Below, piece after piece: positions 1 through 11,738 of a stretch of 15,147 nucleotides of DNA. The translations under genes were made by a program, and so were the position numbers. Origin of the DNA: Candidatus Omnitrophota bacterium. Its GTDB lineage: Bacteria; Omnitrophota; Koll11; Duberdicusellales; 4484-171. Below the pieces are notes generated by a model. The model had not been told where the DNA came from. It searched no databases and saw only the letters and a program-made list of their open reading frames with translations. The stretch spans positions 1 through 15,147 of the forward strand of contig JAUYCY010000193.1 of the NCBI GenBank assembly GCA_030692055.1. The letters are read 5' to 3'. Positions within the stretch are counted from its first letter, which is position 1, and each line of letters starts with the position of its first letter.

Positions 1-217
1 TGGCCAGAAGAATAAAAAAAACAACTACAAAAAATATGGAAATACCCAAATACTGTCTCTTCAAATAGGCCTGAGCCCCCACCCGCACTGCTTGTGCGAT
101 TTCCCTCATCTTATCCGTGCCCTCATCCATTCTCAGGATGCTTAAGACTAGATAAAAGGCAAAACCTAAAGCCATAATCGAACCCACCGGTGCTAACAAC
201 AACAGATCAAAACTCAT
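1..217 (-). CDS. hppA: Membrane-bound proton/sodium-translocating pyrophosphatase, N-terminal part (cut by window edge)
   Basis: This is the first 72 codons of an ion-pumping inorganic pyrophosphatase, which couples PPi hydrolysis to H+ or Na+ export across the inner membrane. The visible part starts with a hydrophobic helix (LLLLAPVGSIMALGFAFYLV region, residues 5-24). The family's typical stretch follows, with MDEGTDKM at about 30-37, VGAQAYLKRQY at about 46-56, and then the start of a second helix. The ATG at 217-215 is preceded by AAAGGAG at 233-227, a well-spaced ribosome binding site. The rest lies outside the window, so K+ dependence and the pumped ion cannot be judged. A broken copy of the same 5' end lies at about 1782-1866. 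Confidence 0.9.
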   Translation of the reverse strand, partial: MSFDLLLLAPVGSIMALGFAFYLVLSILRMDEGTDKMREIAQAVRVGAQAYLKRQYLGISIFFVVVFFILLA

Positions 218-280
218 TTTACTACACTCCTTTCAAAAATAAACTCAACACAATTAATTCTTTAAGTAAAAATTTTTAAT

Positions 281-567: not shown

Positions 568-1059
568 ATGTCGCTTATAACAAAAGATATTATATCAGAT
601 TTCCTCAGAAATAATAGCTCCTTATGCATGCAAGCAACTGGTGACAGCATGTGGCCTTTTATTCGGGAAGGCGATTCAATATCATTCAAAATAGTTAATT
701 TTAAAAATATCCGTACAGGTGATATAGCTGTATATATTAAAAATAAAAATATACCTCTTATTATTTCTCATAGGATTATTAAGAAAACAGATGACGCATT
801 AATAATAAAGAGTGATGGCGCGCTTTTTCATTATGACATTATTCACGAAGATGCTTTGATTGGCAGGTTAAAAAGCATAACAAGAGACGGCAAAAGCATT
901 AGATTGGACAATAGAATTCATGACATATTAAATAAAATAATCGCTTGGTTTTCTTTAAACATACCAGTTGTCCTGTTTATTTTTAAACATTCTTTCTTTT
1001 TGCTATTTTTTTTATTAAAATGCCTGGATAGAATAATCCATGGCAAAACAAAAGTATAG
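568..1059 (+). CDS. S24/S26-like signal peptidase (possible RiPP leader peptidase)
   Basis: This 163-residue protein resembles the small serine peptidases of the S26 signal peptidase / S24 LexA superfamily. The nucleophile motif GDSMWPFI puts Ser at residue 27. SHRII places a His at 68 and KSDGA an Asp at 83, matching the Ser-His-Asp arrangement of SipW/eukaryotic-type signal peptidases rather than the Ser-Lys pair. Residues about 119-152 are strongly hydrophobic and could be a C-terminal membrane anchor. It is the only clear plus-strand gene, convergent with the 44-residue precursor gene at 1105-1239, and its likely job is cutting that or a related precursor. No ribosome binding site precedes the ATG, so the start is uncertain, but the N-terminal helix before the Ser motif fits the family. 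Confidence 0.75.
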   Translation: MSLITKDIISDFLRNNSSLCMQATGDSMWPFIREGDSISFKIVNFKNIRTGDIAVYIKNKNIPLIISHRIIKKTDDALIIKSDGALFHYDIIHEDALIGRLKSITRDGKSIRLDNRIHDILNKIIAWFSLNIPVVLFIFKHSFFLLFFLLKCLDRIIHGKTKV

Positions 1060-1104: not shown

Positions 1105-1239
1105 CTAAGATGCGACTTTAGGGTTTGGATTTTCCCAAGCGCAACAAATTTTACAAAATGCGATTGCTAATTTTTCCTCAGCAATTATGCATGGCTTAAC
1201 ATAAATCTTTTTAGCATTTTTCTTTGGATTAGTTTTCAT
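1105..1239 (-). CDS. Cys-containing RiPP precursor peptide, 44 residues (second locus)
   Basis: A short gene of 44 codons plus TAG. The ATG at 1239-1237 has AAGAGG (1250-1245) five bases upstream. The N-terminal half is Lys-rich and leader-like, with KPCII and an EEK patch around residues 15-23. The second half holds Cys29, Cys32 and Cys33 (plus Cys17) and Trp35, and the peptide ends in Ser44. The layout of Lys-rich start, KPxI, acidic patch, hydrophobic LA, then Cys motif parallels the precursor at 7150-7326. It begins 19 bases after the stop of a SPASM-domain remnant (1259-1510), the neighbour expected for a radical SAM-modified peptide. The function as a precursor is inferred from this context. 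With its dedicated maturase destroyed, it may be orphaned or served by the enzymes of the main cluster. Confidence 0.65.
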   Translation of the reverse strand: MKTNPKKNAKKIYVKPCIIAEEKLAIAFCKICCAWENPNPKVAS

Positions 1240-1258: not shown

Positions 1259-1510
1259 CTAATTATCTATTATGGGTTTTAAACATGATGCATTCGCTAG
1301 GTTGCTTTTGGTTAGGAACACTACAGCTGGACAATGCTTGCAATAAGAATTTAACTTGCACTCATTGCATACCCTAGGCTCTTGAAGCAACGTTTCTCTT
1401 AATATTGATAACATTTTAGATTCTTTCCAAATTTCTTTAAAACTTTTATTTCTTATATTTCCAGCTGATATACGCAAACTAGTGCAGGAATATACTTCTC
1501 CGCAAGGACC
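1259..1510 (-). pseudogene. Remnant of a radical SAM/SPASM peptide maturase (C-terminal SPASM domain only)
   Basis: The open frame reads from just after an in-frame TAG (1513-1511). It gives a typical SPASM segment: GPCGEVYSC, then a GNIRNKSFKEIW stretch, then a C-x2-C-x5-C-x2-CP pattern and a final Cys. These are the auxiliary iron-sulfur ligands of peptide-modifying radical SAM enzymes. The whole radical SAM core, including the CxxxCxxC motif, is missing. An ATG at 1477 exists inside the domain but would give a useless fragment. The upstream end runs out of frame into an HPr-kinase-like remnant, so an internal deletion has probably fused two genes. Confidence 0.7.
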
Positions 1511-1685
1511 CTATAACAGTAAACTTTTTTTTAAATTCAGATAAACTTACATGATTTATTTCTATATAGTATTGTGGTATTTTTTCAACAATAAATAGAG
1601 AAAATTCTTCTTTTATAGCCCTAAATAAACATGGATTATCTATTCTGATAGAAAATACCAAATTACATATTTCAATATTAATCAT
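1479..1685 (-). pseudogene. Remnant of HPr-kinase-like protein (N-terminal piece)
   Basis: From the ATG at 1685 the frame gives about 68 residues starting MINIEICNLVFSIRID. The alternation of beta-type strands (INIEI, LVFSIRI, FSLFIVE, YYIEI) resembles the region that begins the HPr-kinase-like half of the fusion enzyme at 4965-6917 (its residues about 363-410). The frame stops before any P-loop. Its last residues overlap, in another frame, the SPASM remnant at 1259-1510. I read it as the 5' end of a kinase gene joined by deletion to the 3' end of a radical SAM gene. The similarity is weak by eye, so the identity is moderate. An alternative TTG start at 1721 adds 12 residues. Confidence 0.45.
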
Positions 1686-1781
1686 GTAATATATATTAGC
1701 ACTTAATAGTCTTAAATACAAATAGTACGATACTTAAGTAAAGTCATAGTTTTATGAGACAAGTGCACAGCGTTCCGCTTC

Positions 1782-1866
1782 CTCAAGATACTTAAGGCCG
1801 ATAGAACGCAAAACCTAAAGCTAAAATCGAACCTACCGGTGCCAATAACAATCACTCGATGCTAAG
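1782..1866 (-). pseudogene. Broken duplicate of the hppA 5' end
   Basis: Bases 1800-1849 match 151-200 at 43 of 50 positions, and the match continues with one missing base to about 1782. The translated frame still shows LLLAPVGSI and ALGFAFY as in hppA. However, a TGA sits where the start should lead in, the ATG is lost, and a one-base deletion shifts the frame after FAFY. Similarity ends abruptly before the MDEGTDKM region. The piece begins directly after the stop of the third radical SAM gene (1875). Confidence 0.8.
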
Positions 1867-1874
1867 AACTTTTT

Positions 1875-2999
1875 TTATTTTACTATTTCTTTTACCAACC
1901 CCTCTGCTCGAGCATGAGCAACCTCACAAAAATAGTCAACCGGCATGTCTAATTCCCCTGTCTCAAGATAGGCATGGGCCGGGCACCACATACACAGGTT
2001 TATTATCGGGCACTTTCTGCATTTGGCGAGAAACTCTTTTCTCTTTGAATGCATATCCCTGACCTTCAAAGTGAAGTTCTCGAAAGCATCCTTTAGGCTC
2101 TCTTTCTTCAGGTCAACTACGCAATCCGGATGGCACAATGAAGAGCATAACCGGAAAAAACCGTCGTAACTCACGGTAAAACTGCCCTGACCCGCCCCGC
2201 AATGAAAGAGGTGATCGCAGTTTATATGGGAAAAATCCGGATTTATAAGTTTACTACAGTTTTTTTCGAGCGCCGCCGAGCGTTCGGAATCCAACTTTTC
2301 CAGGGCAACTATTTCTTTTGGGGAAAGCCGTTCCCGCTGTATCTGACGGTTTCTTGCCGCATCGCCGTCAAACCTTAGATGCAAAAACGGGTCAAAACGA
2401 AAATAGTCCTTGGTTCTTTCCCGGCAAAACCGCGCAATCTCAGGCAACTCGTGGACATTTGAACGCAGAGCCATTGCCTTAAGGCGGACCTTAATGTTGT
2501 TTTTAAGCAAAAGGCTCAAGCCGAACTTAAAAGCACGAAAGGAGCCGGAATTCCCGGTTACTTTCTCATAGGTTTCCTTAGTTACGCCATATACCGTTAC
2601 TTCAATATCGCGCGGAGGATACCTTTTAAAAAATTTAATATGCTCTTGGGTAATTAAGGTAGCGTTGGTAAAAACCGATATCAAAAGCCCTTTTTTCTTA
2701 ATATAGAGGTAAATATCAAAGAAATCCTCTCTTAGCAATGGCTCACCACCTGTAATCAAACACCATAAAGCCCCTAATTCAACTGCCTGATCAACTATAT
2801 TTTTTATTTCCTTAAAAGAAAGCTCATTACTAATGGTTTCTTTATCATTGGCCGGCAGGTTTATATAGCAATGCCGGCAATTATTGTTGCAGCGGGCAGT
2901 AATCTCCAAATCAAAAGAAACAAGGTTCCTTTGATTCTTAAATTTTCTCCAAAGAGAGAACCCGGACAGAGGAACTGAGTTTATAAAAGAATTTTGGAT
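1875..2999 (-). CDS. Radical SAM/SPASM peptide maturase, third in cluster (start codon unusual)
   Basis: A radical SAM enzyme with a C-terminal SPASM extension, expected to bind one SAM-cleaving [4Fe-4S] cluster and auxiliary clusters and to modify the precursor peptide. CNNNCRHC supplies the CxxxCxxC motif and TGGEPLLR the SAM-binding GGEP. Near the C-terminus CRKC, a Cys five residues on, CMWCP and a last Cys form the SPASM set. It is a close paralog of the protein at 3782-4957. No ATG precedes the motif: the first canonical-type codon is TTG at 2909, which would start only seven residues before Cys1 and has no well-placed ribosome binding site. An ATC at 2999-2997 with AAGGAG nine bases upstream (3014-3009) restores an N-terminus of the paralog's length, with SLW at the same place, so I use it. 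It overlaps the peptidase gene by 19 bases. Confidence 0.8.
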   Translation of the reverse strand: MQNSFINSVPLSGFSLWRKFKNQRNLVSFDLEITARCNNNCRHCYINLPANDKETISNELSFKEIKNIVDQAVELGALWCLITGGEPLLREDFFDIYLYIKKKGLLISVFTNATLITQEHIKFFKRYPPRDIEVTVYGVTKETYEKVTGNSGSFRAFKFGLSLLLKNNIKVRLKAMALRSNVHELPEIARFCRERTKDYFRFDPFLHLRFDGDAARNRQIQRERLSPKEIVALEKLDSERSAALEKNCSKLINPDFSHINCDHLFHCGAGQGSFTVSYDGFFRLCSSLCHPDCVVDLKKESLKDAFENFTLKVRDMHSKRKEFLAKCRKCPIINLCMWCPAHAYLETGELDMPVDYFCEVAHARAEGLVKEIVK

Positions 3000-3475
3000 T
3001 TTATTAATCTCCTTGCAGAAAAAAGAACCTGTTTACAGCACCAAAAACAAAAAGGTAGCAGCTTTAGTTTACTTAAGAAACCTATAAGAAACCGCTCAAA
3101 GCCAAGGCCAAGCTTAATCAACTTACCATTTCTCTCTATGGCAGTTACAACTCCCAGGATATTCTTTCTGGGAATCAGGCCGGCTGCTTCAGTAATATTG
3201 TCCCCTTTTATAAAATAGGAATTTCCCTTTTTCCCTATGACTCTATGGATAACAAACTTTCCTGAACAGGGGTTTATAAATGCTGCTGATTGCCCAAAAC
3301 CAATCGTAGAGTTATGAATAGGAGAAACTGTAACTACATCTTTATCTTTAATAAGAGGCGACATACTGAAACCATTAACTTGAAACCGAAAAGACGCGCC
3401 TTTAGCAAAAACTGACTGCAGCAATCCAGCTAAATCCATCGCGGAAAGCAGAATCTCATTCTGTTGCAGCAACAA
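2981..3475 (-). CDS. S24/S26-like signal peptidase of the main RiPP cluster
   Basis: A 164-residue serine peptidase of the S26/S24 superfamily. NGFSMSPLI places Ser at residue 37, FVIHRVI places His at 77 and IKGDN places Asp at 92, again the Ser-His-Asp type. The C-terminal stretch (about 128-150) is hydrophobic and may attach it to the membrane. Between the PqqD-like gene and the third radical SAM gene, its likely role is leader removal, since the cluster's ABC transporter has no C39 peptidase domain. The TTG start at 3475 is favoured because AAGGAG (3486-3481) lies five bases upstream, inside the preceding gene, with which it overlaps by 20 bases. An ATG at 3439 is possible but lacks such a site. 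Confidence 0.8.
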   Translation of the reverse strand: MLLQQNEILLSAMDLAGLLQSVFAKGASFRFQVNGFSMSPLIKDKDVVTVSPIHNSTIGFGQSAAFINPCSGKFVIHRVIGKKGNSYFIKGDNITEAAGLIPRKNILGVVTAIERNGKLIKLGLGFERFLIGFLSKLKLLPFCFWCCKQVLFSARRLIKSKILL

Positions 3476-3764
3476 TCATTCTCCTTTTTAACAGCTCTTC
3501 AGTAAGCCCTAGAACATCCTTTTCGATTTCTTCAATTGGTGCCTCAAACTCCGCGGATAACTCCAGCGCAATCTCTTTGAAATTTTTTTTTCCATCCAAT
3601 CTTTTCCAGATTGCCCTACCGGTTTCATTGAGAGAGAATATTGCATTTTCTAAGTCGCCTATGCCTGAAGTTATAGGTATAATAATAAATTCGCCCTGTA
3701 CATCACGGGCTACCACGTCTTCAGACGATTTATAAATTGCATTAATATCAACTTTCTTTTCCAT
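3456..3764 (-). CDS. PqqD-like RiPP leader-recognition protein
   Basis: A 102-residue protein of the PqqD family, a winged-helix RiPP recognition element that binds precursor leaders and presents them to the radical SAM maturase. The family signature is clear: FSLNETGRAIWKRLDG at about 43-58, followed by KNFKEIALEL and a last helix with DVLGLTEELLKRRMIV. It is free-standing rather than fused to a maturase, so it may serve several of the three radical SAM enzymes. The ATG at 3764 is chosen over a GTG at 3770 because AGGAG (3778-3774) then sits nine bases away rather than three. The 3' end overlaps the peptidase gene by 20 bases. Confidence 0.88.
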   Translation of the reverse strand: MEKKVDINAIYKSSEDVVARDVQGEFIIIPITSGIGDLENAIFSLNETGRAIWKRLDGKKNFKEIALELSAEFEAPIEEIEKDVLGLTEELLKRRMIVAATE

Positions 3765-3781
3765 AAGCACTATCTCCTATT

Positions 3782-4957
3782 CTAACTATTTGTAAAATTA
3801 TTTATTCTCTCCTTCCAATCTTCCACCTCCCAGGCTTTCTCGTTTTCTTCAATCAAACCAAGAAATCGTGCTTGAGCATGGGCAATTTCGCACAGATATT
3901 CAACCGGCGTATCCAAAGTGCCGTGCTCCATCCACGAGTTTGCCGGGCACTGCTCGCAGAGGCCCCTTAAGAAACATTTGGCGCAACGCCGAAGATATTC
4001 TGGATCATTGGCTTTTTTCTCTCTCATCTTTGGAAAAAAATTTTCCAGCGCATCTTTAAACGAACCTGCTTTGAGATTATAAACGCACTCCGGATACCTG
4101 AGCATCATACAAGACTGGAAGTTACCGTAAGCATCTACACATCCGCTGCCTAAGCCTGAACCGCAGGAAAAAAGTTTATCACTCGCCGAATGCATAAATT
4201 TAACGCAAAACTCCTTTATTTCTCTGGTATACTCATCTTTTCTGCGCATCAAAACCTTAAGGCCTTCCTGCGTGGATAAACGTAAACTTCTTATGCATCT
4301 ATTCTTCTTTTCTTCCCTGCGGTTACGCAAGTGAAAAAACATAGAATATGACGGCGGCTTATCCATCCCAGGAATAGTCGCTGCCCACTTTTCAAACTCA
4401 TCTATCTCTTCTTTATTTGGCGGGAGTAACGCTGCCTTGACTACAAAAGGAACTTTTTTCTCCAAAAGCAGGTTTATCCCTCTCCAGCAGGCATCAAATG
4501 AGCCAGCTGTGCGTGTTACTGCCTCATAGGAACTCTTTTTCATTCCATAAACGCTAATTTCAATTTTTTCTAATGGCACGATATATGTAAATAAATCCGC
4601 CAGCTGGGGTGTAATCAAGGTGGCATTAGTAAAAATTAAAACCGTTAGGCCCAATCTTCTGGCGAATAAATACAGCTCCGTAAAATCCTCCCTTAAAAGC
4701 GGCTCCCCCCCGGTAAACCTTACGGTCAGATAACCTAAAGCTGCGGCTTCTTTGAGAATATTCTTGACTTCTTCGGTAGAAAGCTCTTTGTTCTTCGCAT
4801 TCATATCATCCACAGGCAAATTTATACAGCAATGGATACAATTATTATTACAACGCTCAGTAAGTTCCATAACCAATCTGCCTAAAAGAGGAGACTTGGT
4901 CTTCCATAGGGATGCATGGTTATTTTTTTTAGTTACAACATAACTATTGGTTGACAT
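3782..4957 (-). CDS. Radical SAM/SPASM peptide maturase, second in cluster
   Basis: A 391-residue radical SAM enzyme with SPASM domain. The CxxxCxxC motif is Cys36, Cys40 and Cys43 (CNNNCIHC) and GGEP lies at 83-86. The SPASM region has Cys at 265, 273 and 283, then CAKC at 325-328, 334, CP at 337-338 and a last Cys at 356. Its overall plan matches PqqE/AnSME/sactionine-type peptide maturases. Such enzymes form thioether or C-C crosslinks or epimerise residues, but the exact reaction cannot be read from sequence. It starts seven bases after the fusion enzyme's stop and ends shortly before the PqqD-like gene, so it is cotranscribed. It is similar throughout to the enzyme at 1875-2999, suggesting duplication and division of labour. 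Confidence 0.88.
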   Translation of the reverse strand: MSTNSYVVTKKNNHASLWKTKSPLLGRLVMELTERCNNNCIHCCINLPVDDMNAKNKELSTEEVKNILKEAAALGYLTVRFTGGEPLLREDFTELYLFARRLGLTVLIFTNATLITPQLADLFTYIVPLEKIEISVYGMKKSSYEAVTRTAGSFDACWRGINLLLEKKVPFVVKAALLPPNKEEIDEFEKWAATIPGMDKPPSYSMFFHLRNRREEKKNRCIRSLRLSTQEGLKVLMRRKDEYTREIKEFCVKFMHSASDKLFSCGSGLGSGCVDAYGNFQSCMMLRYPECVYNLKAGSFKDALENFFPKMREKKANDPEYLRRCAKCFLRGLCEQCPANSWMEHGTLDTPVEYLCEIAHAQARFLGLIEENEKAWEVEDWKERINNFTNS

Positions 4958-4964
4958 TTTTAAC

Positions 4965-6917
4965 CTACAAATCTTCTAACAGATTAATTACCCTTCCACT
5001 CTTGTCAAAATAAAGTTCATAACAGGGAATTGTATTGCTGACACTCTCCAAAAGCGCCAAAGACTTCTCCCACCAATCCACAGTAACAAAAGGCCTTATC
5101 AGGTGGGCCAAAAGTTTTCTGGCGATTATTTTTTTATCTTTCAGAGGCTCTAAATAATTCCTATCGGATTTATTCAAAAATAAAATTGCTTTTAAAGGCG
5201 CGGAGTTTGCTGATATATCCGGCACATCCCCGTGGCTCCACGTTCCGTAAATCTTGAAACCATCGGGCTGTTTCCTGATAATAATCCTATCATCGCAAAG
5301 TATCTCAGCATTACCTTTTAAAATGGTTGCCATTGTGGATTTGCCCGCTTCAGCATGCCCCACAAAAAGCAGACCATTGCCCTTGAAATTCACGCCGCAG
5401 GAATGCAAATAACAGCCATCCCTATTAGCTAAAACACGCGCGAGGAGTATTTGGTCTGAAGAAAACATAGTCAGAGAGTGTAAATTCCCTTTTAAGAATG
5501 TTCCTTCCTCATCTCTGTAAATTCTGGCACGGGTATGGTCGGAATTAAATGCTGCAACGCGGTGCAGGCTTTTATCCCCTTGTATCGGCGAAATCCCTAA
5601 ATAAATCCATGAGCCGTTGTTTTTATATATTGCCCAGGGAGGCTTGCGGTAAACCTCATTCGCTAAACCTTTGCCATCTAAATCAGGAAGCGAAAAATGA
5701 AGCCGGATAGAAATATTGTCTTTTCCGGGGCCCTTAACCTCAAATTGTTTAAATTTGGAATTGAATGTATCGTTTTTTATTGGTAAATCCGATTCTACTT
5801 GTATGGTAATATCCGCAATTTTAAAGTAACGCCGATGGTTTTTCTGCCAGTTCTCTTTGAATTTTCTGTTTTCTTTGGCTATAGCGCAGAGATATTCGAC
5901 CTTTTTATTAAAATCTCTGTGCTCTAGATATCCATAAACCGGGCAAAAACGGCAGTCTTTCTTGAATTCACAGAAACTGCAATTATTTTTATATTCTTCT
6001 GTAATTTTTACTTTTGTAGCTAAGGAAGGGATGAAATTATCCCAACAGTCTTGAAAATTCCCCTTTCTTAAATCATAACGCACTTCATCATCTTTGATAA
6101 AACGACAGAAAGTCATCTTGCCGTAAGGGTCAATATGGAAATTGCGGCGGTTATTTACACAGGAGAAAAATAGGTATTCGCCGTTCGTCACTTGATGGCA
6201 ACCGCTATTCTCTTTCTTAATCCATTCCTCATAGGACAAATTCGGCTTATCCAGTTCAACTACTTCTTTGGGTGGCAGCCTTTGGTGGATTATTTCGGCA
6301 TTCCTTTGCCTATCACCGGATGCAGAAAGAAATAACCAGGGCGCCCCTATCCTGTAATACTTGCTTAAAGATTCTGCTAATTTTACCATCTCTTTAAATT
6401 GATGGTAGCTATCTTTCATTGGGATAAGTTGAACTATAAAACCCGCTCCTGTTTCTTTCAGATAAGCGAATCCGCGCATAGTTGCCTCAAATGAGCCGGG
6501 ATTGCAGGTAATATGGTCGTGAACTTCGGCAGTTGCGCCATAAAGCGCGACCATTTTCACCCCTTTTCTTGCCATAAGTTTTGCTATTTTAGGCGTAATC
6601 AAAGTGCCATTGGTATTTATAGAATAAGAATTGGAATGATTAGTAATATAATCAAATATCTCTGAGAAATCCGGCCTTAACATCGGCTCGCCACCAGAAA
6701 TATACCACTTGCGGCAGCCCATTTTCCGTGCCTCATCGGCAATTTTCCTTATCTCTTCAAAAGTAAGTTCTTCTCTCTTCTCTGAAGAATCTGGCGGGAT
6801 TCTCAACCAGCAATGCCGGCAGTTATTATTACAGCGGTAGGTAAGGTCAATACTGCCTTCTAAAGGCAGGCGGGGCAAATTATTTATTTTTATTTCTTTC
6901 AGATACTCTTGTATCAT
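4965..6917 (-). CDS. Fusion of radical SAM/SPASM maturase and HPr-kinase-like domain
   Basis: This 650-residue protein joins two RiPP enzymes. Residues 1 to about 355 are a radical SAM/SPASM enzyme: Cys29, Cys33 and Cys36 form CxxxCxxC, SGGEP is at 74-78, and SPASM Cys lie at 253, 271, 313, 316, 322, 325 and 344. Residues about 363-650 resemble HPr kinase/phosphorylase homologs: a beta-rich N-terminal part, then GHAEAGKST at 520-528 as the P-loop, CDDR at 541-544, and a helical end. Free-standing HPr-kinase homologs in lasso peptide clusters phosphorylate the C-terminal Ser of the precursor. The precursor upstream ends in Ser, so a similar role is a reasonable inference. The gene is the first enzyme after the precursor. 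Its ATG at 6917 lacks a clear ribosome binding site but overlaps (ATGA) the stop of a 12-codon frame at 6914-6952. Confidence 0.85.
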   Translation of the reverse strand: MIQEYLKEIKINNLPRLPLEGSIDLTYRCNNNCRHCWLRIPPDSSEKREELTFEEIRKIADEARKMGCRKWYISGGEPMLRPDFSEIFDYITNHSNSYSINTNGTLITPKIAKLMARKGVKMVALYGATAEVHDHITCNPGSFEATMRGFAYLKETGAGFIVQLIPMKDSYHQFKEMVKLAESLSKYYRIGAPWLFLSASGDRQRNAEIIHQRLPPKEVVELDKPNLSYEEWIKKENSGCHQVTNGEYLFFSCVNNRRNFHIDPYGKMTFCRFIKDDEVRYDLRKGNFQDCWDNFIPSLATKVKITEEYKNNCSFCEFKKDCRFCPVYGYLEHRDFNKKVEYLCAIAKENRKFKENWQKNHRRYFKIADITIQVESDLPIKNDTFNSKFKQFEVKGPGKDNISIRLHFSLPDLDGKGLANEVYRKPPWAIYKNNGSWIYLGISPIQGDKSLHRVAAFNSDHTRARIYRDEEGTFLKGNLHSLTMFSSDQILLARVLANRDGCYLHSCGVNFKGNGLLFVGHAEAGKSTMATILKGNAEILCDDRIIIRKQPDGFKIYGTWSHGDVPDISANSAPLKAILFLNKSDRNYLEPLKDKKIIARKLLAHLIRPFVTVDWWEKSLALLESVSNTIPCYELYFDKSGRVINLLEDL

Positions 6918-6968
6918 ATTTCAATTATAAGTAGAGACTTATCTTGGTTCATACTTTTTAAGAAAATT

Positions 6969-7008
6969 AGGGCGGGCAACAATTTAAAAACAAATCCCCA
7001 CCCGCCCT
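6969..7008 (-). terminator. GC-rich hairpin between precursor and maturase genes, possible attenuator
   Basis: AGGGCGGG (6969-6976) and CCCGCCCT (7001-7008) are perfect eight-base inverted repeats around a 24-base loop. On the minus strand the stem is followed by AATTTTCTT, only a partial U-tract. A leaky terminator here would make more precursor than enzyme message, as in many RiPP operons. An RNA-processing or stability hairpin is the alternative. Confidence 0.45.
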
Positions 7009-7050
7009 TTGCATTACCCCAAAGAGAGGTCTTGCATAGCCCCTTATACT

Positions 7051-7087
7051 ACGCAGGTAGAATCCGTAGATTCTTACCACCTTTGCG
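7051..7087 (-). repeat. Imperfect hairpin downstream of the precursor gene
   Basis: GGTAGAATC (7056-7064) pairs with GATTCTTACC (7069-7078) with one bulged base around a CGTA loop. Outer ACGCA/TGCGT arms can extend the stem. It lies in the 232-base spacer between the precursor stop and the first maturase, which holds no convincing gene. It may protect the precursor mRNA 3' end. Confidence 0.4.
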
Positions 7088-7149
7088 TTAGCATTGAGCG
7101 AAGTTGAAGGACCAAAAGCCAAAGAAACCAAGGGCTAATGGGGGAGGAC

Positions 7150-7326
7150 TCAAGATACACAGGCATCCCAACAGGAGGTGCAAGTTATGTAACACTGATG
7201 GTCCTCCTGAGCATCGTCATTCACCTTTGGCGTACAAGCACAAACTGCCAAAACAGACTCTTCAGGTTTTCCCCTCATTAAGATAATTAGCTTTGGCTTA
7301 TCCCATTTTTCTTTTTTCTTCTCCAT
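7150..7326 (-). CDS. Cys-rich RiPP precursor peptide, 58 residues
   Basis: A 58-codon gene ending in TGA. The ATG at 7326-7324 is preceded by AGGAGGAG (7341-7334), the best ribosome binding site in the window. Residues 1-28 look like a leader: a Lys/Glu-rich start, then WDKPKLIILMRGKPEESVLA (8-27). The rest is a six-Cys core with Cys29, 31, 45, 49, 52 and 56, Trp53 and a C-terminal Ser58. Cys45, 49 and 52 have CxxxCxxC spacing. No membrane helix or known domain is visible. It sits directly upstream of three radical SAM/SPASM genes, a PqqD-like protein and peptidases, so it is the likely substrate of this cluster. I have an impression that KPKLIxLxRxKPEE leaders recur in small uncharacterised bacterial proteins, but could not check. 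A strong hairpin lies just upstream (7346-7378). Confidence 0.82.
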   Translation of the reverse strand: MEKKKEKWDKPKLIILMRGKPEESVLAVCACTPKVNDDAQEDHQCYITCTSCWDACVS

Positions 7327-7345
7327 AATATATCTCCTCCTATAA

Positions 7346-7378
7346 TCATCAGGTATAATTAAGGATTATACCTGATGA
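7346..7378 (-). promoter_or_regulatory. Perfect 14-base inverted repeat in the precursor leader (operator or mRNA hairpin)
   Basis: TCATCAGGTATAAT (7346-7359) and its exact complement (7365-7378) flank a five-base loop and end four bases before the precursor's ribosome binding site. There is no U-run behind it on the transcribed strand, so it is not a standard terminator. It could be an operator for a dimeric regulator, a hairpin that keeps the ribosome binding site open, or an RNase barrier. Confidence 0.7.
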
Positions 7379-7645: not shown

Positions 7646-8737
7646 TTAGATTGTCTTTTTCATTATTATGCGTTCAACCGCTGCTTTATTCTTATCGGTT
7701 AAAAAGATATCCTTAGAGACGGATACTTCTTTAAAACCCATATTTTTAAAAAACCTTTCTAAACCTGCATCTTTAAATACGCTTAGTGATACATCTCTTA
7801 TTCCTAGCTTTTTCAATACGTCATCTGCCTGATTAAAAAATTTCTTCTCTATATTTGTACCCCTATAACGAGCCCTTAATTGAGCTTCGCACAACCACCA
7901 GCCGCAAAACAGGCAGCTACCGGGTTTTAAGAAAAAGGATAGATACCCTGCGGATTTAGAGTTGACTTTAAGGGTAATTTTCCATTTTACCAGTGCGGAT
8001 TCTCCCTGCAAAGAACTCTTTAGATCTTCAAGAGAAAGTTTTCTAAAAAACCTACTATTAGGCCTTGAGCTAATAGGCGCCTGTAAACAGAATTCAATTT
8101 TACTATTTATGAACAAAAATCCGGTTAAGACTCGATAAAACTTATAATGCTGCAGGTAGTTATGCAAATAGGCTAACCGGTTCCAATAATATCCGCCCAA
8201 ACCGCCCAAATAAATATAAATATCCAAAAATAACTTCATGGCTAAAGGATATTTCCTTGGCCGAGTACCTAAGATCATGCCATTTCTTTCTATGCGCGTC
8301 ACGATACCCAGAATATCTTTATCAAAACTGGGGCCGTCATTGCCAAATCTCGCTGTATCCGGACGCGTAACAATATAATCCTGTCCGTCTTGGCTGCCTT
8401 TATCAATTGTGCGATGGGCAAACAAACGGTTGAAACGGCGGTAGACTGCGATATCTCCTACTTGAATTTGCCCGGCACTGCGAGGTTCAAGATGCAAAGC
8501 ATCTTTGGGCCTGATGCAAGGGTACATACAGGTGCCCTGAATATAAAACTTGATCATCTTCTTTTCCAAAAATAAACGGCCTAATTCAAACATTTGCAAG
8601 ACTAATCCGGCCTCCAGATTATTATTCAAAAAAAATAAAGATGCTGGTATATTATTTTTATCTATTTTTTCGCAGGCAGGAGCATTCTGATAAATCTGGC
8701 TGCAGAAATCCTGATAATTCAGATCTTTACATATCAC
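7646..8737 (-). CDS. S26-like peptidase with Cys in the nucleophile position, fused to a GNAT-like acetyltransferase domain
   Basis: A 363-residue fusion, numbered from the GTG at 8737. Residues about 60-170 match S24/S26 peptidases. The nucleophile motif reads QGTCMYPCI, with Cys70 (codon TGT) where the other two homologs here have Ser. His108 (FAHRT) and Asp127 (RPDT) are retained. Residues about 210-363 resemble a GNAT N-acyltransferase, with a RARYRGTNIEKKF acyl-CoA-loop-like segment and a C-terminal GLERFFKNMGFKE typical of the last GNAT strands. The protein may be a thiol peptidase, or a dead peptidase used for binding with the acetyltransferase as the active part. The GTG lies ten bases after AGGAGG (8753-8748). 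A TTG at 8746 is in frame but only one base from it. It follows the nucleotidyltransferase gene closely, in one operon. Confidence 0.72.
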   Translation of the reverse strand: MICKDLNYQDFCSQIYQNAPACEKIDKNNIPASLFFLNNNLEAGLVLQMFELGRLFLEKKMIKFYIQGTCMYPCIRPKDALHLEPRSAGQIQVGDIAVYRRFNRLFAHRTIDKGSQDGQDYIVTRPDTARFGNDGPSFDKDILGIVTRIERNGMILGTRPRKYPLAMKLFLDIYIYLGGLGGYYWNRLAYLHNYLQHYKFYRVLTGFLFINSKIEFCLQAPISSRPNSRFFRKLSLEDLKSSLQGESALVKWKITLKVNSKSAGYLSFFLKPGSCLFCGWWLCEAQLRARYRGTNIEKKFFNQADDVLKKLGIRDVSLSVFKDAGLERFFKNMGFKEVSVSKDIFLTDKNKAAVERIIMKKTI

Positions 8738-8757
8738 TTTAAGCAAGCCTCCTGCGG

Positions 8758-10011
8758 TTAGCGATATCCGGCATATTCATTCTTACTTTTAACTATTTTT
8801 CTTATAGTTGCTTTTAAAATTAACACCAATAAATAGTATGGAAAATATAAAAACCGTAACCTATACCATAAGTGAGTTTTGATACTATAAGGTGACAACT
8901 TATAAAACTTAGCAAATTGTTCCTGCGGCATTTTTATGATCATACTTACCGGTTCCCAAAAATTATCATACACCAGAAAGTGATTTTTTAAAAAAATATT
9001 TCTGCCCGTTAAATCTTGGCCCAAAAAAGTATCTTTCAAAATAAAGCCTTCAATTAAACGCTTCTTATAATTAACTGGGGTTAAACTATTCAGTATTAAA
9101 TTGGGCACTTGAATATCAAAAAAAATATTTGCCTGGATAAGCCTAAAATATAAACTGGCGCACATTTGCCCATTTTTGGCTTCCTTCAGGATATAATCCC
9201 AATCTAAATCTTTATATTTAGTCAATAAACAAGCAAAATCGCAAGCTGACTTTAAAGAAAGCACGTTTCCGAAACGGCGCAGGTGCAGCGTTAGACAAAA
9301 AAGCGTATCCTCAGGCGACAATAGAGCAACTTCTCTTTTCCCAACTTGCAATTTTCTTATCCTCTCCCAAAGGGATGGCAGTAACCATAATTTTCCAGGA
9401 TAATCTAGCAACCAATGTAACTCCAGTATAGAAAACATTTTCCCGCTTTTATTTTTTGCAAAAGCAATATGGTAATTTTTTCTTCTCCAATAATCTTCTT
9501 TAAATCCACAGAGTTCCTTCTGGTATCCCAAAGTTTCTAATAAGTTTTCGGCTTGAGAAATTTTTTGTTTTTTTATTAAGATATCGATGTCGACCATCGG
9601 CCTTAATCCAGTCTTACCATTATACATATTATCAATAAGAAAAGCTGAGCCTTTTAACGGTAGCAAATCTACACCCTGTTCTCGGAAAATATCCGCAATC
9701 TCTAAAAATTCTTTTTCCAGGCCAGCAAGGTACGCTAAAACAAAATAGTAAGTTTTCTTCAATAAATCAACTTCACCGCTAGGAAGCAAAGCAGAGTAAT
9801 TTTTAAGACAAGAATAGGCAAAAGAAGATAATTCATGCTGCGCCAAGAGCGAATTGAAATACTCCCAATTAACCGACTCTTGGGCCAATATTTTTTCAAT
9901 CTCCGGTAGCCTACGGTCATTGACTATCCATTGAGCAATAAGGGAAACTAATCTTGCTTCCTGACTAATTGGATACTTGCCGATCTTAATAATATTGATT
10001 TCCCACCTCAA
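8758..10011 (-). CDS. Nucleotidyltransferase-like protein (NTP_transf_5 family)
   Basis: A 417-residue protein with the minimal-nucleotidyltransferase pattern. A helical N-terminus is followed by VDLLPLKGSAFL (about 114-125, with Lys120-Gly121), then Tyr130, Arg137 and the metal-binding MVDIDIL at 139-145 (Asp141 and Asp143), and then a mostly helical C-terminus. Members of this family are common in peptide natural-product clusters. In some lasso peptide clusters they accompany an HPr-kinase homolog and act after Ser phosphorylation, which fits the kinase-fusion enzyme here. The substrate cannot be deduced. The TTG start overlaps the stop of the ABC transporter gene, indicating translational coupling. 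There is no better start nearby. Confidence 0.78.
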   Translation of the reverse strand: MRWEINIIKIGKYPISQEARLVSLIAQWIVNDRRLPEIEKILAQESVNWEYFNSLLAQHELSSFAYSCLKNYSALLPSGEVDLLKKTYYFVLAYLAGLEKEFLEIADIFREQGVDLLPLKGSAFLIDNMYNGKTGLRPMVDIDILIKKQKISQAENLLETLGYQKELCGFKEDYWRRKNYHIAFAKNKSGKMFSILELHWLLDYPGKLWLLPSLWERIRKLQVGKREVALLSPEDTLFCLTLHLRRFGNVLSLKSACDFACLLTKYKDLDWDYILKEAKNGQMCASLYFRLIQANIFFDIQVPNLILNSLTPVNYKKRLIEGFILKDTFLGQDLTGRNIFLKNHFLVYDNFWEPVSMIIKMPQEQFAKFYKLSPYSIKTHLWYRLRFLYFPYYLLVLILKATIRKIVKSKNEYAGYR

Positions 10012-11738
10012 ACCTGGTTCTGGTTTTTAAAAAAATCCTGATAAGACTGACTTTTAGCCAATAACTGCGCATGCGTCCCTTCTTCTATTATGCTTTTCCC
10101 TTTTAAGAAATATATCCGGTCAGCATCCTTTACGACAAATAACCGGTGGGAAATAACAATGGTACTTAAATTGCGCCTTTTTTGTCTTAAGGCCGCAAGT
10201 ATCTTCTCTTCCGTAAACGCATCCACTGAAGATATGGCCTCATCAAGAATAAGCAAGCAAGGCTTTCTTGCAATTGCCCTGGCCAGGGCAACTCTTTGTT
10301 TAAGTCCATGCGACAGCAGACAGGCATCTTCTCCGGTCAATGTATCGAGCCCCTGCGGCAACTCTTTTATATAATCCTCAAGGCCTGCAATTCTAGCTGC
10401 CTCTTCTATCTCTTCTGGAGTTAAGTTTTTTAAACCACCGCTAATGTTCTCCCTGATGGAAACATCAAATAGCAGTGGCTGTTGAGTGGCAATGGCTATA
10501 TTTTTCCTTAAATCATTTAAACGTATCATCCTCAAATCCATTCCATCCAATAGCACCTCTCCTTGACTTGGTTCATAAAGCCTGAGGATGAGATTAATCA
10601 AAGTACTCTTGCCGCATCCTGATGAACCCACAATCGCCATCCAAGTATGAGGCGGAATATCCAAATCCAATTCTTTAAAAATTAACTTCTTCTGTTGATA
10701 CCCAAACGTAACATTATTAAATTGAATAGACCCTTTGATAGACTCCAAACTACTTGCTCCGGGCAGGTCTTTTATCCCGGGCTGGCTATCCATAATTTCA
10801 AGAAATCTTTCCAATGATACGGATTCCTTGGCAACATATTCAAATCTATAACTCAGGGACTCTAATAAGCTGCCTAATTGCATAAGATAAAGCATTGCTG
10901 CTGTATAGCTGCCAATCGTCAATCTGCCCTTAATAATAAGCCAGCCTCCAAAAAGGGTTACTATTCCATAGACAGCCTTGGACAAAAAAGACGAACTTAA
11001 AGAATTAAATATAGACCAACGAAAACTTTTTATCCCTAAACGGATATTTTTGATCAATGATCTTAAATAGGCATGCCTTTGATAGGACTCTAAACCAAAT
11101 GCTTTAATTATTAAAATCCTGGAAAAAGCATCATGGATTTCCTTAGACAATTTAGCGCGGCACTCCCAAAGTTCTCTATAGATGGGGGTAAGCTTTCTCT
11201 GAATATAAACGCTATTGATAAGAAATAGAGGGCTAAGCAATAATAAAATTATGGTCATGGGTAAATTAACCCAAAGCGAAATGACCAAAATAATAACCAA
11301 TTTAAATAAATCCGCTAGAAGGCGTGGGCATTGCTCAACTGCAAAATCAGCCTGAGCATCTACATCAGCTAACCTATAAGTATTCTCTCCTGCGGATTTA
11401 GACTGAAAAAAATCTAATTCAAAAGAATAGAATTTCCTGATAAATCTATTAACGAAATTAAGTTTTAATTTTATCATCATCTTATTTTTTACTATATCTT
11501 CTAACACCAAAAATAATGTGCTCAGAATGAATATTGCCGCCCCCCAGACAGAAATATGTAGAAATTTGCCCAAATTCCTAGCTAAAAAAGCATCATCCAT
11601 ATATAACTTGGAAAGAAAAGGCGAGACTAAAAGGAAACTGCTGGAAACCAGTTTCAATAAAACCAAAAAAATTATCTGTTTTGTATAATAAAAGGGGAGT
11701 TTTTTAAAAAAATTCTTAAAATTTTTAAAATATGCCAT
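10008..11738 (-). CDS. ABC exporter (fused membrane and ATPase domains), probable peptide exporter
   Basis: A 576-residue half-transporter. Residues about 15-305 form the membrane domain with roughly six helices. The ATPase domain follows, with Walker A GSSGCGKST at 371-379, the signature LSHGLKQR at 475-482, Walker B LLILDE at 495-500 and an H-loop VISHRL. The signature departs from LSGGQ. There is no N-terminal C39 peptidase domain, so it would export an already cut peptide, or a lipid-linked molecule, as a homodimer. The next genes (nucleotidyltransferase, S26-like fusion) overlap or abut it, which ties it to the RiPP cluster. It also sits 49 bases below glycosyltransferase genes, so a lipid-glycan flippase role is an alternative. 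The ATG is preceded by AAGAGG. Confidence 0.85.
   Translation of the reverse strand: MAYFKNFKNFFKKLPFYYTKQIIFLVLLKLVSSSFLLVSPFLSKLYMDDAFLARNLGKFLHISVWGAAIFILSTLFLVLEDIVKNKMMIKLKLNFVNRFIRKFYSFELDFFQSKSAGENTYRLADVDAQADFAVEQCPRLLADLFKLVIILVISLWVNLPMTIILLLLSPLFLINSVYIQRKLTPIYRELWECRAKLSKEIHDAFSRILIIKAFGLESYQRHAYLRSLIKNIRLGIKSFRWSIFNSLSSSFLSKAVYGIVTLFGGWLIIKGRLTIGSYTAAMLYLMQLGSLLESLSYRFEYVAKESVSLERFLEIMDSQPGIKDLPGASSLESIKGSIQFNNVTFGYQQKKLIFKELDLDIPPHTWMAIVGSSGCGKSTLINLILRLYEPSQGEVLLDGMDLRMIRLNDLRKNIAIATQQPLLFDVSIRENISGGLKNLTPEEIEEAARIAGLEDYIKELPQGLDTLTGEDACLLSHGLKQRVALARAIARKPCLLILDEAISSVDAFTEEKILAALRQKRRNLSTIVISHRLFVVKDADRIYFLKGKSIIEEGTHAQLLAKSQSYQDFFKNQNQV

What the first reader, a model, noticed from the sequence alone, without database searches (positions are those of the whole stretch)
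1875..7326. Uncalled 58-residue six-Cys precursor heading a three-radical-SAM RiPP cluster
Seen: a short minus-strand gene at 7150-7326 with AGGAGGAG ahead of its ATG. It has a leader-like KPKLIILMRGKPEESVL segment and six Cys in the last 30 residues. It lies directly upstream of three SPASM radical SAM genes, a PqqD-like gene and an S26-like peptidase gene. Known: PqqD-like proteins deliver leaders to SPASM maturases. Inference: this is an uncharacterised RiPP family whose likely modification is Cys-based thioether or related crosslinking.
Basis: partly seen in the sequence, partly recalled or inferred. Interest (0 to 1): 0.85.

Follow-up and report, generated by a model that had tools for sequence, protein, structure and literature searches.

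The report
Radical-SAM peptide cluster with fused kinase
A very small gene encodes the raw peptide of a natural-product system found in many anaerobes, for which I found no published description; radical enzymes probably modify its cysteine-rich core while a kinase fused to one of them probably phosphorylates the peptide's last residue.

Summary
The first radical SAM/SPASM enzyme is fused to an HPr-kinase-like domain (kinase residues intact in 31 of 32 aligned sequences, allowing Ser/Thr and Asp/Glu swaps). Upstream lie an NTP_transf_5 protein, an S26-GNAT fusion and an ABC exporter. In 156 distinct precursors the leader is W-x-x-P-x-L, four Cys are usual, and the last residue is Ser/Thr (149/156), with Cys six residues earlier in 124/156. 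In 285 genomes of an Omnitrophota phylum sample all 8 with the fusion have the precursor; 3 of the other 277 do. In one genome precursors are fused to PqqD (4 of 5 copies show it); another has 21 precursors on 10 contigs but one fusion gene.

Best reading: a RiPP on the leader-RRE-kinase chassis of paeninodin-type lasso peptides, with lasso protease and cyclase replaced by three SPASM enzymes and S26-type peptidases. C-terminal phosphorylation is inferred; the radical chemistry is unknown. It is a sister of SynChlorMet, not a member. No product has been seen.

The parts
7150..7326 (-). 58-aa RiPP precursor: leader about residues 1-26 (W8-x-x-P11-x-L13 ... PEE-x-VL), core 27-58 with C29, C45, C49, C52 (family positions), extra C31 and C56, C-terminal Ser58
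7334..7341 (-). AGGAGGAG ribosome-binding site of the precursor
   Evidence: read directly
7346..7378 (.). 14-nt perfect inverted repeat (5 nt between arms) just upstream of the ribosome-binding site; possible operator or 5' UTR hairpin; its core pattern was not found in the 75 fetched loci
4965..6917 (-). 650-aa fusion: radical SAM + SPASM (about 1-361) and HPr-kinase/PEPCK-fold domain (about 363-650; H505, G520, G525, K526, S527, D542, D543)
3782..4957 (-). second radical SAM/SPASM maturase (391 aa)
3456..3770 (-). PqqD-family RRE (leader-binding) protein, PF05402 61.8 bits
2981..3475 (-). S26/S24-like protein (archaeal-type signal peptidase-like, Ser and His motifs), candidate leader peptidase; scores below curated cut-offs
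1875..2909 (-). third radical SAM/SPASM maturase; homology runs upstream of the TTG at 2909, real start probably near 2999 (non-canonical codon or sequence error)
7646..8746 (-). S26-like domain (Cys in place of the active-site Ser: GTCMYP) fused to a GNAT-like domain (below cut-off here; relatives in L017 and L041 score above it)
8758..10011 (-). NTP_transf_5 protein (PF14907, E 6e-40), Pfam's 'uncharacterised nucleotidyltransferase'
10008..11738 (-). ABC exporter (membrane + ATPase domains), candidate product exporter

Best explanation
A RiPP biosynthetic operon. The PqqD protein binds the W-x-x-P-x-L leader of the 58-aa precursor and presents the core to three SPASM radical SAM enzymes, which modify the conserved Cys core (thioether crosslinks are the likeliest chemistry, not shown). 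The kinase domain fused to the first radical SAM enzyme phosphorylates the C-terminal Ser/Thr hydroxyl, as PadeK, ThcoK and PsmK do on lasso precursors; the NTP_transf_5 protein, where present, may further modify that phosphate as the predicted nucleotidyltransferase PsmN does. An S26-like Ser-His peptidase removes the leader and the ABC transporter exports the product. Shown here: precursor family, cassette synteny, co-occurrence, PqqD-precursor gene fusion, predicted kinase fold and active-site residues, terminal Ser/Thr. Inferred: leader binding, phosphorylation site, bond type, cleavage, export, function.
For: Last residue is Ser in 136 and Thr in 13 of 156 distinct precursors (entropy 0.77 bits against 3.57-4.10 at -2 to -6; S+T 15.7% elsewhere in the cores), and Cys stands at -7 in 124 of 156; enzymes at the same loci end in S/T in 21 of 175 (ORFs cut by contig ends not removed). 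Kinase motif H-G-G-K-S/T-D-D/E in 31 of 32 aligned sequences and all ten rSAM+SPASM Cys in 32 of 32 (window plus 31 copies from 30 of 43 loci; truncated, split or divergent copies at 13 loci were left out beforehand). Lasso peptide kinases need the same residues (PMC10368454, section 23). C-terminal domain predicted at pLDDT 93.6 with PEPCK/HPrK fold; N-terminal part matches SuiB, PqqE, SkfB. PadeK phosphorylates a C-terminal Ser conserved in precursors of clusters with the kinase, and PsmN adds hexose to it (PMC9266682, passages). Lasso leaders carry YxxPxL (PMC10368454, passages); W..P.[LIVM] occurs in 150 of 156 here. Co-occurrence: fusion in 8 of 285 genomes, all 8 with precursor; 3 of 277 others (Fisher 1.7e-13, or 1.2e-10 without the two seed genomes). 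PqqD-precursor fusions in G017.
Against: No product or activity is known. BsfK, an HprK-like lasso kinase, phosphorylates an internal Ser3, so a kinase does not imply the C-terminus. A SynChlorMet ScmC (L035) keeps the kinase residues, but three motif-picked candidate precursors on the SynChlorMet side end in V, F and P. 7 of 156 precursors do not end in S/T: three degenerate L034 copies, L050 (Y), two near-identical ones in L069 (V), P0065 (G, perhaps truncated). L028 keeps a Ser-ending precursor with a dead kinase. Kinase-domain scores lie below curated cut-offs (33 of 200, 31 of 125, 15.4 of 33.3), Foldseek TM-scores are modest (0.23-0.40 by query among the 45 best), and PEPCK, not HPrK, fills the 50 rows shown by VIA-align. 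NTP_transf_5 was found in 8 of 21 well-covered loci.
Confidence: 0.66

Rival explanations
1. The kinase domain acts on another target (internal Ser/Thr, or a protein), and the terminal Ser/Thr with the fixed Cys at -7 is instead the substrate of a radical SAM macrocyclisation or a recognition tail.
For: Cys at -7 in 124 and S/T last in 149 of 156: a nearly fixed spacing suits a ring of constant size; BsfK acts internally; SynChlorMet-side candidates lack terminal S/T.
Against: Thr substitutes for Ser (13 of 156) as a hydroxyl acceptor would; the published kinases tied to terminal Ser share the active-site residues.
Confidence: 0.2
2. The Cys residues bind a metal or Fe-S cluster, or form disulfides, so that the product is a redox or metal carrier and the rSAM enzymes do other chemistry (epimerisation, C-C links).
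For: The last two Cys are spaced CxC to CxxxC in 116 of 156. C31 and C56 are both present in the window and P0002 and both absent in P0003.
Against: Other members break that pairing: L005 and L066 have the CxC without a Cys at -3, and L002's second copy has Cys at -3 without the CxC. Three SPASM maturases per cassette; the core is otherwise hypervariable, unlike a carrier.
Confidence: 0.2
3. It is simply a SynChlorMet cassette (known from NCBIfam).
For: Same building blocks: PqqD, HprK-like, SPASM enzymes; partial matches include ScmC-F.
Against: All four Scm models fall far below cut-off (ScmE 94/400, ScmF 95.4/400, ScmD 29.2/100, ScmC 30.9/125), while ScmE (502/400) and ScmF (432/400) in L012 and ScmC (256/125) in L035 stand beside this cassette (ScmD in L012 85.6/100 and ScmE in L019 396/400 just miss).
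Confidence: 0.06
4. The ORF is a chance reading frame and the system has another substrate.
For: Short; no useful match in Pfam or NCBIfam.
Against: Family conservation, coding pattern, co-occurrence and PqqD fusion.
Confidence: 0.01

Closest known systems
Paeninodin/pseudomycoidin-type lasso peptides (PadeA-K, PsmK, PsmN)
   Same: PqqD-type RRE, aromatic-x-x-P-x-L leader motif, HprK-like kinase with the same catalytic residues, precursor ending in Ser, a nucleotidyltransferase partner, ABC exporter; 2 of 50 precursors weakly hit the PadeA-family model (best E 0.0093) and 1 another lasso model (E 0.003).
   Different: No lasso B2 protease or asparagine-synthetase-like cyclase among the 18 window ORFs scanned with Pfam; three SPASM enzymes; kinase fused to one of them; Cys-rich core. 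That PsmN itself is an NTP_transf_5 protein was not tested.
SynChlorMet cassette (ScmC-F; NCBIfam model names; no paper with the name)
   Same: PqqD, HprK-like protein and SPASM enzymes together; lies next door in some related loci.
   Different: Kinase fused to a third rSAM enzyme, S26 peptidases, a different precursor with C-terminal S/T; all four Scm models below cut-off.
Sactipeptide and ranthipeptide maturases (AlbA, SkfB, SuiB, PapB, StsB)
   Same: Radical SAM/SPASM architecture and fold, Cys-rich substrates.
   Different: Of the best 25 curated families shown per enzyme none passes its cut-off; separate PqqD; kinase; no SCIFF-type six-Cys or CxxxD/E pattern seen by eye (those patterns are recalled).
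Prochlorosin-type systems (one maturase, many scattered substrates; recalled, no call)
   Same: G003: 21 precursors on 10 contigs with one full fusion gene and one close PqqD.
   Different: Radical SAM rather than lanthionine chemistry.

Membership tests
RiPP (general) | short gene-encoded precursor with conserved leader and variable core beside an RRE and maturases | tested here: met
RiPP (general) | leader bound by the RRE | not testable with these tools
   supported indirectly by PqqD-precursor gene fusion in G017
SynChlorMet cassette | ScmC, ScmD, ScmE, ScmF above curated cut-offs | tested here: not met
   30.9/125, 29.2/100, 94/400, 95.4/400 bits; Scm proteins neighbour related loci
Lasso peptide | B2 leader protease and asparagine-synthetase-like cyclase C | tested here: not met
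   no such Pfam match among the 18 window ORFs scanned; the whole genome could not be searched
Lasso peptide | YxxPxL-type leader motif | tested here: met
   W..P.[LIVM] in 150 and [YF]..P.[LIVM] in 2 of 156; Trp in place of Tyr
Lasso-type peptide kinase (HprK-like) | PEPCK/HPrK fold with His-Gly-Lys-Ser-Asp-Asp residues | tested here: met
   on a predicted model; motif as listed in PMC10368454
Lasso-type peptide kinase (HprK-like) | phosphorylates C-terminal Ser of the precursor | not testable with these tools
   terminal S/T in 149 of 156 precursors is consistent
Sactipeptide / ranthipeptide | Cys S to C-alpha or C-beta/gamma thioether | not testable with these tools
   needs mass spectrometry or NMR
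Sactipeptide / ranthipeptide | match to a curated maturase family above cut-off | tested here: not met
   best of these among the three enzymes: StsB 88.5/625, AlbA 66.9/850, PapB 62.7/340 (best 25 of 76-82 families shown per enzyme)
SPASM radical SAM enzyme | CxxxCxxC plus seven auxiliary-cluster Cys | tested here: met
   fusion: 10 of 10 Cys in 32 of 32; the other two enzymes were read by eye only
S26-type signal peptidase | catalytic Ser with His/Lys partner, family score above cut-off | tested here: inconclusive
   Ser and His motifs in 26 of 27 S26-class hits, but TIGR02228 31.8/51.85 and PF00717 21.2/23.3 for the window protein

The most novel reading that the evidence does not exclude
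A distinct, phylum-crossing RiPP class: a bifunctional radical-SAM/SPASM-kinase enzyme both modifies a four-Cys core and phosphorylates (perhaps then nucleotidylates or glycosylates) the C-terminal Ser/Thr, on a lasso-type leader/RRE chassis without lasso enzymes. One host carries a single maturase set with some 20 scattered substrates; another carries the RRE fused in cis to its precursors.
Probability: 0.58. Interest if true: 0.82.

Novelty: new variant of a known kind. Interest (0 to 1): 0.72.

Why it matters
It joins two RiPP logics, kinase tailoring of the C-terminus as in some lasso peptides and radical SAM modification of a Cys core, in one fusion enzyme. It gives a testable substrate rule (C-x5-S/T at the end), explains small 'hypothetical' genes in poorly known anaerobes, and offers a natural library in which one enzyme set seems to serve many cores. 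A relative sits in a cultured strain, Desulfofustis glycolicus DSM 9705 (L026), so a product can be sought directly.

Tried and rejected
SynChlorMet membership: rejected on scores and because Scm genes sit next to the cassette. Lasso membership: rejected for lack of B2/C among the window ORFs scanned. Chance ORF: rejected. The 44-aa ORF at 1105-1239 as a second member: the family profile did not report it and it had no match in 29 genomes (that empty answer proves little). Conserved operator: the core pattern of the inverted repeat was not found in the 75 fetched loci. The Cys in the S26-GNAT active site is not general: Cys in 2, Ser in 4, motif not recognised in 2 of 8 SGN-class hits. Paired extra Cys (C31/C56) as a disulfide: not borne out by other members.

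Papers: searches listed none whose title or start of abstract describes this cassette; two searches returned no paper at all. I saw passages of five listed papers: PMC9266682, PMC10368454 (and all of section 23), PMC4289311, PMC8939145, PMC9902471. The library holds open-licence PMC papers only, so this is weak evidence of absence; the 2011 radical SAM family survey cited in PMC8939145 is not held.
Full report
What is in the window. On the minus strand, in order of transcription, stand an ABC exporter (10008-11738), an NTP_transf_5 protein (8758-10011, PF14907 E 6e-40), an S26-like domain joined to a GNAT-like domain (7646-8746), the 58-aa ORF (7150-7326), a 650-aa radical SAM protein (4965-6917), a second radical SAM protein (3782-4957), PqqD (3456-3770, 61.8 bits), an S26/S24-like protein (2981-3475) and a third radical SAM protein (1875-2909). 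The precursor has AGGAGGAG at 7341-7334 and, just above it, a 14-nt perfect inverted repeat (7346-7378). No whole genome is held for the window; the closest fusion homologues (best segments 75 and 77% identical) are Omnitrophota MAG contigs.

The small ORF is a gene of a family. A search with the 58 residues gave three homologues besides itself (67, 60, 50% identity). A scan of genome contigs with the 650-aa protein gave 43 loci. A profile then found 52 family ORFs at E<0.01 in 28 of these 43 loci and the window; the next hits have E 0.43 and more, and reversed-sequence controls reached 1.4, 0.028 and 0.14 in the three rounds. The records are titled Omnitrophota, WOR-1, WOR-3, Saganbacteria, Aminicenantes, Chlorobiaceae, Methanolinea, Methanothrix, Desulfofustis and others; most are MAGs, whose labels can be wrong. 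W8, P11, C29, C45 and C52 are invariant in a 50-row alignment with mean column identity 27% (46 of the 51 locus ORFs, three proteins and the window; two truncated or aberrant and three degenerate ORFs left out). Single rows hit Pfam models weakly (methanobactin E 0.02, DUF4884 0.024); in NCBIfam 2 of 50 hit the paeninodin lasso family (best E 0.0093) and single rows three others, among them another lasso model (0.003). A profile search of 5.8 billion proteins returned 66 including the window's own, unnamed or 'hypothetical'. Codon positions 1, 2 and 3 of the leader differ by 0.41, 0.28 and 0.64 per pair (41 of 52 ORFs that fit the block), the pattern of a translated gene.

It belongs to the cassette. 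Of 39 sources (window included) with a nearly full fusion gene, 21 have at least 2 kb before and 5 kb after it; within 9 kb of it 20 hold another SPASM gene (17 at least two), 19 PqqD, 20 an S26-like gene, 20 a precursor, 10 the ABC gene and 8 NTP_transf_5. I gave 20 of the 43 loci to a whole-genome search: 20 of 20 genomes hold the precursor, including the four whose locus showed none (L003, L013, L018, L021); the other 11 loci without one were not followed. In 285 genomes of the phylum of G001 (genome of an Omnitrophota MAG) the precursor occurs in 11 (E<=1e-6) and the fusion in 8 (E<=1e-120); all 8 are among the 11. Fisher p is 1.7e-13, or 1.2e-10 without the two genomes that had seeded the search (related genomes are not independent). 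Of the three precursor-only genomes, G055 and G281 have SPASM, PqqD and S26 genes beside a precursor, so the fusion gene may be missing from the assembly; G281 also has an unfused kinase-like protein (32% identity) beside a radical SAM protein; G245 shows only one weak rSAM match. In G017 the precursor is the C-terminal end of a PqqD protein: two full ORFs of about 230 aa (L058, L060) have PqqD, a charged linker and the precursor, two more copies are cut by contig ends after the same PqqD tail, and a fifth is cut earlier and shows none. There the substrate is tied to its carrier.

What the kinase probably does. In 156 distinct precursors (162 before exact duplicates of the last 45 residues were dropped; one contig-truncated copy left out beforehand) the last residue is Ser in 136 and Thr in 13. 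The entropy there is 0.77 bits; at -2 to -6 it is 3.57 to 4.10. At -7 it is 1.33, with Cys in 124. The rest of the core has 15.7% S+T and enzymes at the same loci end in S/T in 21 of 175. The profile used to find members includes the tail, which may favour it slightly, and near-identical members remain in the count. In paeninodin-type lasso peptides the kinase phosphorylates the C-terminal Ser of the precursor, and PsmN, a predicted nucleotidyltransferase, is tied to hexose on the phosphorylated Ser (PMC9266682, passages); the RRE strongly stimulates a related kinase (PMC10368454). The leader motif W-x-x-P-x-L is the lasso YxxPxL motif with Trp for Tyr. I therefore infer C-terminal phosphorylation guided by PqqD. 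Against it: BsfK acts on an internal Ser3; the ScmC of L035 keeps the kinase residues though three candidate precursors on the SynChlorMet side (L012, L030, L035), picked by motif only, end in V, F and P; seven precursors here end otherwise; and L028 keeps a terminal Ser with a dead kinase. A tree should settle whether terminal S/T follows the kinase type.

Radical chemistry and processing. Three SPASM enzymes and a four-Cys core (106 of 156 have exactly four Cys) suggest thioethers, but no result here separates these from other bonds, and no sacti- or ranthipeptide maturase model among those shown passes its cut-off. In the window and P0002 two further Cys occur together (C31, C56) and both are missing in P0003, but other members have one without the other, so a pair is not established. 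The S26-like proteins have the Ser and the His of the archaeal type in 26 of 27 hits and are the natural candidates for leader removal; this is inference.

One enzyme set, many substrates. G003 (genome of L010) has 22 matches at E<=0.001; 21 were confirmed as ORFs on 10 contigs, 20 of them away from the cassette, while the weakest (E 9e-4) was not. The same genome has one full fusion and one close PqqD. Flanking ORFs look like housekeeping genes to the eye (no family search was run on them). G003 is a MAG, so binning errors are possible.

Relation to known systems. The cassette works like the kinase branch of lasso biosynthesis but is not a lasso system; it is built like SynChlorMet but fails all four Scm models tested, while Scm genes stand next to it in L012 and L035 and a near-threshold ScmE in L019. 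Hence: new variant of a known kind. Ten searches of an open-licence library listed no paper on it (named under Tried and rejected).

Noticed in passing
window 1721-1880 and 1-230 (minus): Some 70 bases near the start of the gene reading MSFDLLLLAPVGSIMALGFAF (recalled as an HppA-type proton pyrophosphatase) recur as a decayed second copy downstream of the third rSAM gene, as if the stretch between had been inserted or duplicated.
   Followed up: partly
window 1105-1239 and 1259-1721 (minus): A 44-aa ORF with a Y-V-K-P-C-I leader-like motif, four Cys and a terminal Ser follows the remnant of a SPASM protein (PF13186 in 1262-1510): perhaps the wreck of a second peptide cassette.
   Followed up: partly
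window 568-1059 (plus): A lone S24/S26-like protein (PF00717 25.3 bits, above its 23.3 cut-off) lies beside the remnant cassette on the other strand.
   Followed up: no
window 2909-3032 (minus): The third rSAM gene has no ATG/GTG/TTG in its conserved N-terminal stretch; AAGGAG followed by ATC near 2999 suggests a rare start codon or a sequence error.
   Followed up: partly
window 7346-7378: Perfect 14-nt inverted repeat directly upstream of the precursor's ribosome-binding site; core pattern not in the 75 fetched loci.
   Followed up: partly
L012 near 3045, L030 near 6168, L035 near 6884: Candidate Cys-rich SynChlorMet-side precursors with aromatic-x-x-P leader motifs that do not end in Ser/Thr.
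   Followed up: no
G075:C166:12500-13423: A stand-alone kinase domain 51% identical to the fusion's C-terminal half lies between a precursor and the fusion gene, next to another radical SAM gene: the kinase can exist unfused.
   Followed up: no
L010 / G003: 21 confirmed precursors scattered over 10 contigs of one 1.5-Mb MAG.
   Followed up: partly
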